A stretch of DNA of 64,000 nt from Terribacillus sp. DMT04. Lineage in GTDB: Bacteria > Bacillota > Bacilli > Bacillales > Amphibacillaceae. This document shows, in pieces, positions 1-50,947 of the stretch. Positions within the stretch are counted from its first letter, which is position 1, and each line of letters opens with the position of its first letter. Made by a program: the position numbers and the translations under genes. The notes beneath the pieces were generated by a model. It was not told the DNA's origin. It worked only from the letters and a program-made list of their open reading frames with translations, and did no database searches. The DNA is taken from the NCBI RefSeq assembly GCF_019056395.1, contig NZ_CP077639.1, positions 2,172,001 through 2,236,000 on the forward strand, read 5' to 3'.

Positions 1-137
1 TTCCGGATTTCCTCAAGTAAGGTGTTAAAGCCTGTCTGCGTGTGTCTTAGTTCCCCTTCAGCTAAACAGATTTCACCCTGATAAATGACTTTATAGCTTT
101 TCCCCATTGATACATCTAAAGCAATTACATACTCCAA
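1..137 (-). CDS. IS110-family transposase, N-terminal fragment (runs off the window)
   Basis: The minus-strand frame opens with TTG at 137-135, a GAGGAG ribosome site about 8 nt upstream, and stays open to the window edge. About 45 residues are visible. They begin LEYVIALDVSMGKSYKVIYQ, which resembles the start of IS110 transposases, where the Asp of the ALDVS stretch is the first residue of the DEDD (RuvC-like) active site. The rest of the protein, with its C-terminal Tnp20 domain and serine nucleophile, lies outside the window, so integrity cannot be judged. IS110 recombinases move through a circular intermediate and are guided by a bridge RNA from the element's non-coding end. A gene of this type does not belong to the conserved pheST neighbourhood, so it marks an insertion. 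Confidence 0.82.
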   Translation of the reverse strand, partial: MEYVIALDVSMGKSYKVIYQGEICLAEGELRHTQTGFNTLLEEIR

Positions 138-164
138 TTTATATCTCCTCTCACGTGTTTTGAA

Positions 165-310
165 AGGTCTTCACTTTTTCATTTCGATTCCAATTTCCTA
201 TACACGAGCTCCATTGGCCCCAACATACTTAAATCTGATTCAGAAATGAAAGTGAAGAAGCTCGGTTTTAAATTCGGATTCAAGATCCCAGAGGCTGATC
301 GAGCTTTCTT
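165..310 (-). ncRNA. Candidate IS110 bridge RNA
   Basis: Read on the minus strand, the region upstream of the transposase can fold into two consecutive long-loop hairpins. The first pairs 300-306 with 258-264 (7 perfect pairs) around a 35-nt loop. The second pairs 243-257 with 169-185 (15 positions, one 2-nt bulge) around a 57-nt loop, which holds an inner helix 213-217/190-194. Bridge RNAs of IS110 elements (IS621 type) are about 170-180 nt, lie in this same place, and have two internal loops that bind target and donor DNA. Which loop does which job cannot be read here. The fold was found by eye; no covariance was tested. Confidence 0.5.
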
Positions 311-330
311 TCACCTCTCACTATACTCCT

Positions 331-378
331 AAAAAGAAAAATAGTGGGCAAAGTCATCCGTCGATGACCTTACCCACT
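331..378 (-). terminator. Intrinsic terminator of pheT
   Basis: The stem is 363-378 paired with 343-358, 16 positions with few mismatches, around a 4-nt loop. A T-rich run follows on the minus strand (331-342). It lies 20 nt after the pheT stop and ends the pheST transcript. Confidence 0.88.
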
Positions 379-397
379 AATCTTAGTATGTTTTATA

Positions 398-2824
398 TTA
401 ACTTCTCAATTCCGCACCATGCGCTGCTTTCACAGCTTCCTTAATGCTGTTATAAGATGCTTCTACTTCTTCATCTGTTAGTGTGCGTGTTGGGTCTTGG
501 TACAGCACAGTATAAGCAATGGACTTCTTGCCAGCTTCCATGTGCTCGCCTTGGTATACATCAAAGATTTGCACTTGCTGCACTAGCTCACCACCTGCTT
601 CTTTGATCGTCCGCTGAATGTCGCCAGCATGTGCTGTTTCATCAACAACAAGCGCGATATCACGCGTGACAGACGGGTGACGCGGTACTGTGCGGAAGCT
701 TGGTTCTTCTTTATACTGATCCATCAAATAAGCCACGTCTAAATCGAATACATATGTTTCTTTCAAATCGTACGCTTTTTGTACGGTTGGGTGCAATTGT
801 CCTACCACACCAACTGTGCGGCCGTTATGGGAAACCGTTGCTGTACGTCCAGGATGATAGCCCTCTACTTGTGCCTGCTGGAAAACAGGTTCAAGGTCAA
901 GCTGTGCGAAGATGCCTTCAACTATTCCTTTTACAACATAGAAATCAACTGGCTTCTTCTCTTGCTGCCATGGCTGCTCCATCCACGTACCAGTAATTGC
1001 ACCTGCAAGACGGGCCGTTTCTTTAGGCTGCTCTGTCGTTTGCTCTTCTTCTGAAAGGAAAACACGACCAAATTCAAAGTAGCCTAAGTTATCTTGTTTA
1101 CGTGCCACATTATAAGACAGTGTGTCAACAAGTTCTGGAAGCAAGCTAATGCGCAGGTGACTGTGATCTTCACTCATCGGCATTTTTAATGCAACAGCGT
1201 GTACGCTTTTCTCTTTTACTTCTGGGCTGACAAGCATTTCTGTGCGTGCTTTGCTCGTTAGCGAGTAAGTGATTGTTTCCATCAAGCCAGCACCTTGCAA
1301 ATACTGTTTTAGCTGACGTTTTAAATATTGCTTTGTAGTCAGTTTACCAGCAAACGCTTCTCCTTCTGGCAGCGTGTAAGGAATATTATCATATCCGTAG
1401 ATACGAGCAATTTCCTCGAGCATGTCTTCAAACAAGCTGATGTCGCCGCGTCTTGTTGGGATAAAAACCGTGAATTGGCTCTTATCTTGTTCAAAACGGA
1501 ACTGCAATCTAGTCAAAATCGATGCGATTTCATCATCAGAGATTGTAGTACCTAAACGTGCGTTTACGCTTGTCGTATCTAGCTCGACTTTTTTCTCTTG
1601 GCGATCTAATTCGTCGAATTCAACAACACCTTCGGCAACCGTTCCGCCAGCGTATTCTGCTAGTAAGCGAGCAGCATAAGCGCCTGCTTTTTTGACACGA
1701 TTTGGATCAATGCCTTTTTCGTAGCGCGAGCTCGCTTCACTGCGTAAGTTATGATGCTTGCTGGAGCGGCGGATTGCACGGGAATCAAAGTAAGCTGCTT
1801 CCAGCAATACAGTTGTCGTTTGATTAGAAACTTCAGAGTTAGCGCCGCCCATCACACCTGCAAGCGCAATCGGCTCCTTGCCGTTTGTGATAACTAGCTC
1901 ATCACCTTTTAGTGTGCGTTTTTGATCATCCAGAGTTTGCATTGTTTCGCCTTCGTTCGCAGTTCGGACAACAATTTCTTTTGTTGCCACTTTGTCATAA
2001 TCAAAAGCATGCAGCGGCTGTCCGTAAACAAGCAGCACATAGTTTGTAATGTCGACAACGTTATTGATCGGGCGAATGCCTGCTGCCATTAAGTAATTGC
2101 GCATCCAAAGCGGAGATGGTGCAATCTTTACGTTTTCAATTACATAAGCGCCATAATAAGGATTAAGCTCAGCATCTTCTACTTTCACTTGTACAAAATC
2201 TGCTGCCTTGCTGTCGCTTGTCGCATACGCTTCCTCCGGCAAGTTAACTTCCTTATTCAGGATTGCCGCTACTTCGTAAGCAACACCAAACATGCTCATC
2301 GCATCAGCACGGTTAGGTGTCAAACCAAGCTCCAGAATCACATCATCTAAGTTAAGCAGTTCTGCAACAGGAGTTCCAACTTCCGCATCTTCAGGGAAAA
2401 CAAAAATGCCTTCTGCGAATTCTTTTGGTACAAATTTCTCATCAATTCCTAGTTCTTGAAGCGAGCAAACCATTCCGTGCGATTCGACGCCGCGCAGTTT
2501 TGCTTTTTTGATCTTCATGCCGCCAGGAAGACGTGCACCCGGAAGTGCGGCTGCGATTTTCTGCCCTTGTGCAATATTCGGTGCACCACAAATGATTTGG
2601 TAAGTTTCTGAACCAACATTGATTTGACAAAGATTTAATTTGTCTGCATTTGGATGTTGTTCGCAGCTTTCCACATAGCCGACTACTACGTTCGTGCTTT
2701 CTGGAGCAACGCGCTCAATGCCTTCTACTTCAATACCGGAGCGCGTAATTCTTTCTGCTAGCTCCTCCGGTGTAATGTTATCTATATTTACATATTGTTT
2801 CAGCCAATTTAAAGATACAAACAT
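398..2824 (-). CDS. pheT: Phenylalanine--tRNA ligase beta subunit
   Basis: This 808-residue protein has the full bacterial PheT layout: an N-terminal EMAP-type tRNA-binding domain (about 40-155), B3/B4 editing domain (about 215-390, which hydrolyses Tyr-tRNAPhe), B5 (about 405-480), a catalytic-like core, and a C-terminal ferredoxin-fold anticodon-binding domain (about 713-805, containing RHPSVTRDIALVVDE). It forms the (alpha-beta)2 enzyme with PheS and charges tRNAPhe in the cytoplasm. Length is normal for Bacillaceae. The gene starts 17 nt after pheS and is cotranscribed with it under the T-box upstream of pheS. Confidence 0.97.
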   Translation of the reverse strand: MFVSLNWLKQYVNIDNITPEELAERITRSGIEVEGIERVAPESTNVVVGYVESCEQHPNADKLNLCQINVGSETYQIICGAPNIAQGQKIAAALPGARLPGGMKIKKAKLRGVESHGMVCSLQELGIDEKFVPKEFAEGIFVFPEDAEVGTPVAELLNLDDVILELGLTPNRADAMSMFGVAYEVAAILNKEVNLPEEAYATSDSKAADFVQVKVEDAELNPYYGAYVIENVKIAPSPLWMRNYLMAAGIRPINNVVDITNYVLLVYGQPLHAFDYDKVATKEIVVRTANEGETMQTLDDQKRTLKGDELVITNGKEPIALAGVMGGANSEVSNQTTTVLLEAAYFDSRAIRRSSKHHNLRSEASSRYEKGIDPNRVKKAGAYAARLLAEYAGGTVAEGVVEFDELDRQEKKVELDTTSVNARLGTTISDDEIASILTRLQFRFEQDKSQFTVFIPTRRGDISLFEDMLEEIARIYGYDNIPYTLPEGEAFAGKLTTKQYLKRQLKQYLQGAGLMETITYSLTSKARTEMLVSPEVKEKSVHAVALKMPMSEDHSHLRISLLPELVDTLSYNVARKQDNLGYFEFGRVFLSEEEQTTEQPKETARLAGAITGTWMEQPWQQEKKPVDFYVVKGIVEGIFAQLDLEPVFQQAQVEGYHPGRTATVSHNGRTVGVVGQLHPTVQKAYDLKETYVFDLDVAYLMDQYKEEPSFRTVPRHPSVTRDIALVVDETAHAGDIQRTIKEAGGELVQQVQIFDVYQGEHMEAGKKSIAYTVLYQDPTRTLTDEEVEASYNSIKEAVKAAHGAELRS

Positions 2825-49619: not shown

Positions 49620-49701
49620 GCCTGCTTCCCCCCATCTTATATGTAAAAGGAACTCACTTACTTTTTCAGTATACCATTTCTAATTGTCATGAAAACGCAA
49701 A

Positions 49702-49738
49702 AAAGAGCTGGTCCCATCAAGTCTGGGACCAGCTCTTT
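49702..49738 (-). terminator. Terminator of ackA
   Basis: A 14-bp perfect stem (AAAGAGCTGGTCCC with its complement) with a 9-nt loop lies 7 nt after the ackA stop, and T residues follow on the minus strand. Confidence 0.9.
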
Positions 49739-49744
49739 GCTAAA

Positions 49745-50947
49745 TTATTTTGCTACAGTTTCAGAAAGACGAACTGTATCTCTGGCAATCATTACTTCTT
49801 CGTTTGTAGGAATGATAATAACTTTTACCGGAGAATGCGGGTATGTTAGGAATTGTTCTTTACCGCGAACATTATTCAATGCTGGGTCATAATAAACGCC
49901 CATGAATTCAAGACCTTTCAGTACGCGTTCACGTACTTCAGAACTGTTTTCACCAACGCCAGCTGTGAAGATAATTGCATCTACACCACTCATGCGCGCA
50001 GCATAAGAACCGATATATTTGTGAATTCTTTCAGCAAACACATCAAGTGCTAGCTCTGCACGCTCATCGCCTGCTTCAGATTTGCTCTCAATGTCTCGCA
50101 AGTCACTGGAGAAACCAGATAGTGCAAGCATTCCGCTTTCCTTGTTCAAGACATGCAGTACTTCGTCAGCAGTTTTGCCTGTTTTACGCATGATGAATGG
50201 AATCAAGGCAGGGTCAATGTTACCAGAACGAGTACCCATTGTTACACCTGCAAGCGGTGTGAAGCCCATAGATGTATCAACAGATTTACCGCCTTCGATC
50301 GCTGCGATACTTGCGCCGTTACCAAGGTGAGCAGAAATCAGACGAAGATCTTCTACTGGACGGTCAAGCAATTCAGCTGCACGCTGTGATACGTATTTAT
50401 GACTTGTACCATGGAAACCGTATTTACGGATGCCATATTGTTCATAGTAGTCATAAGGCAGGCTGTAAAGATACGATTCAGGCGGCATTGTTTGATGGAA
50501 AGCTGTATCAAACACAGCAACCGCTGGAATGTTTGGCAGGATCTCTTTAAATGCGCGGATGCCTGTCAAGTTTGCCGGGTTATGCAAAGGTGCTAGCTCA
50601 GAAACTTCTGCAATCTCGTCCATTACTTGTTCTGTAATTACAACAGAGTCACTGAATTTCTCTCCGCCGTGAACAACACGGTGGCCTACGCCGTCAATCT
50701 CATCAAGAGATTTAATAACACCTGTAGAAGTAAGCTTCTCAAGAAGCATTTTTACAGCTTCTTCATGATTTTCAATATCTTTAGTTGTTTCATCTTTTTC
50801 ACCATTGAATTTGATAGTGAAGATGGAATCTTTCAGTCCAATACGTTCTACTAGACCCACTGCCTTTACTTCTTCCTCAGGCATGCGGATTAGCTGGAAT
50901 TTCAAAGAAGAACTACCAGCATTAATTGCTAGAATATTACTCAACAT
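49745..50947 (-). CDS. ackA: Acetate kinase
   Basis: AckA interconverts acetyl phosphate and acetate with ADP/ATP, the last step of overflow metabolism. [11 protein letters not shown] (phosphate-binding, residues 7-17), HRVVHGG, the catalytic Asp in [18 protein letters not shown] and [13 protein letters not shown] are all present. 400 residues. pta is not in the window, as in B. subtilis. No clean cre was found in its leader. Confidence 0.97.

What the first reader, a model, noticed from the sequence alone, without database searches (positions are those of the whole stretch)
138..330. Bridge-RNA-like two-hairpin fold upstream of an IS110 transposase
The non-coding end folds on the transposase strand into a 7-bp stem (300-306/258-264, 35-nt loop) and then a 15-position stem (243-257/169-185, 57-nt loop with an inner 5-bp helix). 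Size, position and two-loop plan fit the bridge RNAs of IS110 elements, whose loops bind target and donor DNA. The element abuts the perfect hairpin of the pheT terminator, so its target may be terminator-like DNA. This would be a specific, possibly undescribed member. Seen: stems and reading frame. Known: IS110 bridge RNA biology. Inferred: loop roles and target.
Basis: partly seen in the sequence, partly recalled or inferred. Interest (0 to 1): 0.75.

Follow-up and report, generated by a model that had tools for sequence, protein, structure and literature searches.

The report
Flipped-guide bridge RNA of IS110 element
A bacterial jumping gene carries a small guide RNA that chooses its landing sites next to gene ends, and in this family the two halves of each guide are read in the opposite order from the best-studied relative although the gene layout is the same.

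Summary
Window 1-394 is the left end of a ~1.6-kb IS110-type element with four near-identical copies in this genome. Its upstream non-coding end encodes a real bridge RNA by sequence evidence: helices co-vary across 33 homologue clusters, a donor guide co-varies with the element's left end, and the 5' target guide matches the right flank (z 11.3, 52 insertions). Two corrections to the finding. (1) The 'pheT terminator' hairpin belongs to the element; it is in all four copies and, with a U-tract, in 33 of 33 clusters. A same-genus relative shows a near-empty site with pheT followed by the target repeat. (2) Guide order is reversed relative to IS621: 5' guides pair with the right target half and the element's left end; 3' guides read like the left target half and the right end. 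This is the order reported for IS1111, but the RNA lies upstream of the transposase as in IS110, and the transposase groups with neither IS621 nor IS4321/IS5075 in a 25-row tree; two outgroup elements keep the IS621 order. Targets are intergenic GAGRCTGGGACAAAAC repeats or hairpins; one copy differs by one guide base that matches its GAGACT target. New variant of a known kind. No RNA or transposition data.

The parts
392..393 (-). Proposed AA core; left target half lies at 394-400 and beyond, overlapping the pheT stop
   Evidence: Boundary from four copies, homologues and relative G001; exact core uncertain within the A-run
385..391 (-). Left-end donor half (ACATACT), partner of the 5' donor guide
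   Evidence: Covariation with 222-229 on the 33-row alignment
380..385 (-). -10-like TAAGAT, 17 nt from TTGACT of the right end when the ends are joined
   Evidence: 17-nt spacing in 31 of 33 clusters
342..379 (-). 5' stem-loop, 17 bp, terminator-like; the finding's 'pheT terminator'
   Evidence: Fold; in four copies; own-versus-cross pairing z -14.0, 33 of 33 better than row median
331..341 (-). U-tract after the 5' stem-loop
   Evidence: At least 5 T in 8 nt in 33 of 33 clusters
320..325 (-). TATAGT, conserved TAnnnT box, possible -10 of an internal RNA promoter
   Evidence: TAnnnT in 33 of 33 clusters; function inferred
161..313 (-). Core of the bridge RNA, closed by outer stem 308-313/161-166
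   Evidence: Outer stem own-versus-cross z -5.6; model R1 matches 156-323 at 159 bits (the window element is among its 33 training rows)
258..306 (-). Target-binding loop: stem 300-306/258-264, inner hairpin 285-288/276-279
   Evidence: Stem z -11.4, inner hairpin z -8.1; covariation
290..297 (-). 5' target guide CAGCCTCT, complementary to the right target (AGAGGCTG)
   Evidence: Right-flank test z 11.3 (52 insertions), 8.7 (33 clusters); C294 is T in copy c106, whose target is GAGACT
266..274 (-). 3' target guide, reads like the left target before the AAA
   Evidence: Positions -1, -2, -3 match in 26, 21, 13 of 33 against 13.4, 14.3, 8.2 expected; local-score test not significant
169..257 (-). 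Donor-binding loop, stem 243-257/169-185
   Evidence: Own-versus-cross z -10.5, 32 of 33 better than row median
222..229 (-). 5' donor guide AGTATGTT, complementary to the element's left end AACATACT
   Evidence: 97.0% of cells paired, covariation 0.341 against 0.082 shuffled
194..202 (-). 3' donor guide TATAGGAAA, reads like the right end GTAGGAA
   Evidence: Listed against right ends of 33 clusters; joint changes in L085, L033, L048, L107
145..151 (-). Ribosome-binding site AGAGGAG of the transposase
   Evidence: Sequence, 7 nt before TTG
1..137 (-). Transposase N-terminal part, TTG start at 137; gene runs out of the window to about G000:C1:2170920
   Evidence: ORF in L005, Pfam

Best explanation
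The non-coding end upstream of the transposase encodes a bridge RNA on the transposase strand. The first loop holds target guides and the second donor guides, as in IS621. [quoted passage not shown] the element's left end, which is the right half of the circle junction), and the 3' guide reads like the left half (left target; the element's right end). Seen from the recombinase, the RNA-plus-transposase cassette sits the other way round between the ends than in IS621. Shown by sequence comparison: the helices, the guide-DNA matches and their order. Inferred from IS110/IS1111 biology: a circular intermediate, a promoter rebuilt at its junction, binding of the RNA by the recombinase, and exchange at an AA core. 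Further inference: since targets lie behind genes and the left end begins with its own terminator-like hairpin, insertion would replace the upstream gene's terminator with the element's and so limit harm.
For: Order test on the same loops: 5' loop against complement of right flank z 11.3 (52 insertions) and 8.7 (33 clusters), against sense of left flank z -1.2 and -0.5; 3' loop against complement of right flank z -0.8 and -0.2. 3' guide against left flank by position z 5.5 over three bases. Donor guide covariation. Helix covariation. One-base guide change with matching target in copy c106. Loci found later fit on the right in 2 of 2 with a right end and on the left clearly in 3 of 7. Strand: 69 G-U against 15 A-C cells in 20 pairs (my tally of the tables). 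IS621 control in the opposite order; IS4321/IS5075 control in the same order.
Against: No RNA or transposition data. In the unrestricted search the best right-flank match lay at the guide in 29 of 52 only, elsewhere in 23 (my count); in the restricted test 47 of 52 beat the row median. The own copy c3067 (L020) matches its guide poorly. The left guide is not significant by local score (z 1.5 and 0.9; z -0.4 and -0.2). Spacing between the end and GAGGCTGGG varies by 1-3 bases. For the donor guide only two of six columns vary on both sides, and two of five measures do not exceed shuffles. Clusters are related, so z-scores overstate independence.
Confidence: 0.88

Rival explanations
1. An ordinary IS621-type bridge RNA whose 5' guides read like the left target half.
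For: RNA upstream of the transposase, target loop before donor loop, as in IS621.
Against: Both tests of this order are null (z -1.2/-0.5 and -0.8/-0.2); the 5' donor guide is the complement of the element's left end.
Confidence: 0.04
2. A true IS1111-group element whose RNA moved upstream (as reported for ISMtsp17), so the guide order is inherited rather than newly flipped.
For: Same guide order as IS4321/IS5075; a 7-bp subterminal inverted repeat GATTAGT/ACTAATC, exact in 19 of 33 clusters.
Against: In the 25-row tree the clade is apart from IS4321/IS5075 and next to a Peribacillus element with the IS621 order; 405 aa against 330-350 aa given for IS1111.
Confidence: 0.15
3. The stems are only a leader or attenuator of the transposase mRNA without guide function.
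For: A strong terminator-like hairpin with a U-tract lies in front.
Against: Guide-target and guide-donor matches that follow the locus.
Confidence: 0.03
4. The functional RNA is made from the opposite strand.
For: Complementarity alone does not fix the strand.
Against: G-U outnumber A-C cells 69 to 15 (tally); U-tract and TAnnnT are on the transposase strand; on the other strand the order would fit neither IS621 nor IS1111.
Confidence: 0.03

Closest known systems
IS621 bridge RNA (IS110 group, PMC11208160)
   Same: RNA upstream of a DEDD transposase; 5' stem-loop, then target loop, then donor loop; junction promoter
   Different: Guide order reversed; AA instead of CT core; strong terminator-like 5' stem-loop with U-tract; outer stem around both loops; different targets
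IS1111-type seekRNA (PMC11187229; IS4321/IS5075 examined here)
   Same: Top-strand complement of the right target comes first, left-sense match second; inner hairpin between them
   Different: RNA upstream instead of downstream; transposase 405 aa and outside IS4321/IS5075 in the tree; exact inverted repeat only 7 bp or less
ISSep2 (Staphylococcus, about 42% identical protein)
   Same: Same ends and RNA layout by eye; RNA model match 110 bits
   Different: Other target; right flank begins AGAGCATATG and forms a hairpin with ATATGCTCT. I found no account of its RNA in the searches
IS4321/IS5075, which target the ends of Tn21-family transposons (Partridge and Hall 2003, seen only as a reference-list entry)
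   Same: An RNA-guided DEDD element that uses a repeated sequence as landing site
   Different: Here intergenic repeats and hairpins at gene ends

Membership tests
IS110 family (DEDD recombinases) | DEDD_Tnp_IS110 and Transposase_20 domains | tested here: met
   Pfam E 2.2e-18 and 3.3e-21
IS110 group (IS621-like) | Structured RNA upstream of the transposase with target and donor loops | tested here: met
[quoted passage not shown]
IS110 group (IS621-like) | Promoter rebuilt by joining the ends | tested here: met
   Sequence only: 17-nt spacing in 31 of 33 clusters
IS1111 group | Long non-coding region downstream of the transposase | tested here: not met
   Long region is upstream (about 255 nt against about 125 nt downstream)
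IS1111 group | Top-strand complement precedes bottom-strand complement in the RNA | tested here: met
   control IS4321/IS5075
IS1111 group | Subterminal inverted repeats of 7-17 bp | tested here: inconclusive
   7 bp exact in 19 of 33, 6 in 2, 5 in 8, 4 in 4; the window's own element has 5
IS1111 group | Transposase within the IS1111 branch, 330-350 aa | tested here: not met
   405 aa; separate branch in a 25-row, midpoint-rooted tree with only two IS1111 references
Bridge RNA / seekRNA | RNA is expressed, binds the transposase and is needed for movement | not testable with these tools
   No expression or biochemical data held

The most novel reading that the evidence does not exclude
A third architecture of RNA-guided DEDD elements: in an upstream-RNA lineage the RNA-transposase cassette became inverted between the ends on the stem of this Bacillota clade, giving IS1111-type guide order from an IS110-type position; the clade favours landing sites behind genes (repeats and terminator arms) and carries its own terminator at the end that faces the upstream gene.
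Probability: 0.55. Interest if true: 0.72.

Novelty: new variant of a known kind. Interest (0 to 1): 0.6.

Why it matters
Guide order was reported as a difference between IS110 and IS1111, from one IS110 member and four IS1111 members (PMC11187229). This clade separates guide order from RNA position, so the order cannot be read off the layout; annotating or reprogramming such an RNA by the IS621 rule would put the guides on the wrong target halves. It offers a natural system for asking how the recombinase tells left from right, and shows a one-base guide change with a matching target inside one genome.

Tried and rejected
Rfam gave no useful match in window 1-800 (one chance hit), but loci with IS621 and IS5075 also gave none, so this says nothing. 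Local-score tests of the 3' target guide were not significant. The first positional test had a register error and came out negative; it was corrected. RNAalifold on the MAFFT alignment missed the donor-loop stem, whose 3' part is poorly aligned; I replaced it by own-versus-cross pairing. The covariance model kept 8 base pairs, so I used it mainly to find more loci. A model match at window 49639-49766 (E 0.03) was taken as chance. Guide order was not worked out for ISRel25, ISMex12, ISEc45, IS5708, ISShdy1 or ISLin1; for L. plantarum L154 it was unclear, although the model matches it at 60 bits.

Rows dropped: of 81 loci with both gene ends located, 8 lacked a recognised left or right end and L070 had too short a flank; removal of duplicates left 52 insertions in 33 clusters. 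The loop position of L103 was set by hand. Three of 28 transposases (translated to the first stop, under 290 aa) were left out of the tree. Of 25 loci returned with the model, 10 were known insertions, 7 were new and read (L187, L189, L190, L193, L194, L197, L198; L189 has nearly the RNA of a training locus, at another site), and 8 were not resolved.

The idea that hairpins are the rule at the target holds for a part only: mean right-flank hairpin energy -7.9 against -4.5 in shuffles (sd of the mean 0.7), 13 of 46 flanks at p up to 0.1, and 9 of 46 left flanks also have one at -8 or lower (right 19 of 46).

Full report
What is there. Window 1-394 is the left end of an IS110-type element. The genome holds four copies (matches at G000:C1 2172001, 3067804, 275006 and 106378) that agree over about 1.6 kb; against the window copy, c3067 differs at 1, c275 at 0 and c106 at 9 positions, and the outer flanks differ. 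The transposase (405 aa, minus strand, TTG start at 137) matches DEDD_Tnp_IS110 and Transposase_20. None of nine other same-genus genomes has the gene at E up to 1e-20; 10 of 159 family genomes, the own one included, have it at E up to 1e-60; 74 relatives came from the named genome collection, by their titles bacilli, lactobacilli, enterococci, staphylococci and similar.

The 'pheT terminator'. The 17-bp hairpin 379-342 and its U-tract are in all four copies and in the aligned homologues; 33 of 33 clusters have a U-rich tail. It is the element's own 5' stem-loop. In relative G001 (L165) the pheT stop is followed by TATAAAAAGATAAAGATAAGGCTGAAAC and, further on, a hairpin ending in TTTGGATTTTTT; in this genome the element sits between these two parts, apart from 6-8 extra bases (an AAGATA-like repeat) in G001. 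So the stretch that follows pheT in G001, with its hairpin, lies on the far side of the element here. The other eight same-genus genomes have other sequences behind pheT.

The RNA. Of 81 loci with both gene ends, 52 distinct insertions in 33 left-end clusters were usable. Pairing each 5' strand with its own 3' strand, against strands of other clusters, gives z -14.0 (5' stem-loop), -11.4 (target-loop stem), -8.1 (its inner hairpin), -10.5 (donor-loop stem) and -5.6 (outer stem). On the alignment all 20 tested pairs have a change on both sides in at least one sequence; covariation 0.723 against 0.257 shuffled and at most 0.171 slid. The window fold is unusual for 138-394 (z -5.88), not for 138-330 alone (z -1.42).

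Donor guides. RNAalifold by itself paired the first bases of the element with the second loop: AACATACT with AGTATGTT, with joint changes in the lactobacilli. 97.0% of cells pair; covariation 0.341 against 0.082 shuffled and at most 0.040 slid; only two of the six columns vary on both sides, and two of five measures do not exceed shuffles. The 3' side of that loop reads like the right end, with joint changes in L085, L033, L048 and L107 (list).

Target guides and their order. With both orders tested on the same loops, the 5' loop matches the complement of the right flank (z 11.3 for 52 insertions, 8.7 for 33 clusters; 47 of 52 and 28 of 33 above their row median) and not the left flank in sense (z -1.2, -0.5); the 3' loop does not match the complement of the right flank (z -0.8, -0.2) and only weakly the left flank in sense (z 1.5, 0.9). 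By position, the 3' guide reads like the left flank just before the AAA: 26, 21 and 13 of 33 at -1, -2, -3 against 13.4, 14.3 and 8.2 expected. In the unrestricted search over the whole target-loop region the right-flank signal is z 10.6 and 7.9, but the best match lay at the guide in 29 of 52 only (my count). Loci found later with the RNA model: on the right, TCTAACTTT in L197 against AAAGTTAGA and ACAGCTC in L190 against GAGCTGT, the two with a right end; on the left, shared TGTACAATAAAC in L189, TGTCAAAC in L193 and ACCCCAAAC in L194 (AAAC included), while L187, L190, L197 and L198 share little beyond the A-run.

Comparison. [quoted passage not shown] E. coli locus L149). In IS1111-type seekRNAs the top-strand complement comes first, in ISEc21 (IS110) last (PMC11187229: abstract, passages, sections 6, 13 and 14). 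In IS4321/IS5075 I see AAAACGGAAA, a hairpin, then TATATTTTC downstream of the transposase, with TCCGTTTT on the right and GCTTTATTT on the left of IS5075 (by eye). The present clade has that order with the RNA upstream. In a 25-row, midpoint-rooted tree it forms one group with ISSep2 (100/100), next to a Peribacillus element (98/97), apart from IS621 and from IS4321/IS5075. Peribacillus elements (TCCTGCCC and CGCACCCG shared with the left flank) and an E. faecium element with a plasmid empty site and CT core follow the IS621 order, by eye. A flip on the stem of this clade is therefore the simplest reading; it rests on two outgroups. ISSep2 shares ends and layout. Five paper searches, in a library of open-licence papers only, listed nothing with this combination in title or abstract; of PMC12045711 I saw passages, of PMC11208158 only the listing.

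Targets. Up to one mismatch, GAGRCTGGGACAAAAC occurs 26 times in the genome, the reversed-pattern control 0 times. The 26 places, printed, are followed by at least three kinds of repeated sequence; two of them abut an IS110 copy or remnant (L123, L125). Of the four copies, the window copy, c3067 and c106 lie at the start of members of these three kinds, the first two with mismatches; c275 lies at GAGGCTGAATCACTTATTCAGCCCC, a hairpin. Copy c106 has one difference from the window copy in the guide-bearing left end upstream of the gene, at base 294, which turns AGCCTC into AGTCTC, and its target is GAGACT. Frames on the left side end within 3 bases of the element's first As in three of four copies; only pheT was checked as a gene. 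Across 46 distinct right flanks, hairpins starting there are stronger than in shuffles (-7.9 against -4.5).

Expression (inference). Joining the ends gives TTGAC[TA], 17 bases, and TAAGAT or TAAAGT in 31 of 33 clusters, so a circle promoter would read into the terminator-like hairpin. A TAnnnT box lies just before the RNA core in 33 of 33 and may start the RNA in the integrated element, though no -35 was seen. Which promoter makes the RNA is open. The idea that the element's left-end terminator replaces that of the upstream gene is untested.

Noticed in passing
G000:C1, 26 places (L123-L148): Intergenic repeats starting GAGRCTGGGACAAAAC, at least three kinds by what follows, some in inverted pairs about 370-430 bp apart (473680/474049, 1029977/1030388, 2998912/2999264, 3013254/3013639). 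Function unknown; several contain hairpins.
   Followed up: partly
L022, G000:C1:858910-859074 and 858766: Remnant of a related element: last 54 residues of the transposase, right end CTTGACTAATCGTAGGAA and the same target GAGGCTGGGACAAAAC.
   Followed up: partly
L024, G003:C13:1628696-1628797: A left-end piece 84% identical to window 291-393 in a genome without the transposase gene; probably a remnant.
   Followed up: no
G013 (L034, L037, L039, L041-L048): Eleven near-identical copies of a 43%-identical relative lie in a larger shared sequence, and the RNA model finds 16 places; the element seems to ride in, or to have targeted, another repeat.
   Followed up: no
right ends of L050, L054, L059-L063: Distance from GTAGG to GAGGCTGGG varies by 1-3 bases, as if exchange slips within the A-run.
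   Followed up: no
L049/L028: In the Ornithinibacillus element a second copy of the last 37 transposase residues follows the gene.
   Followed up: no
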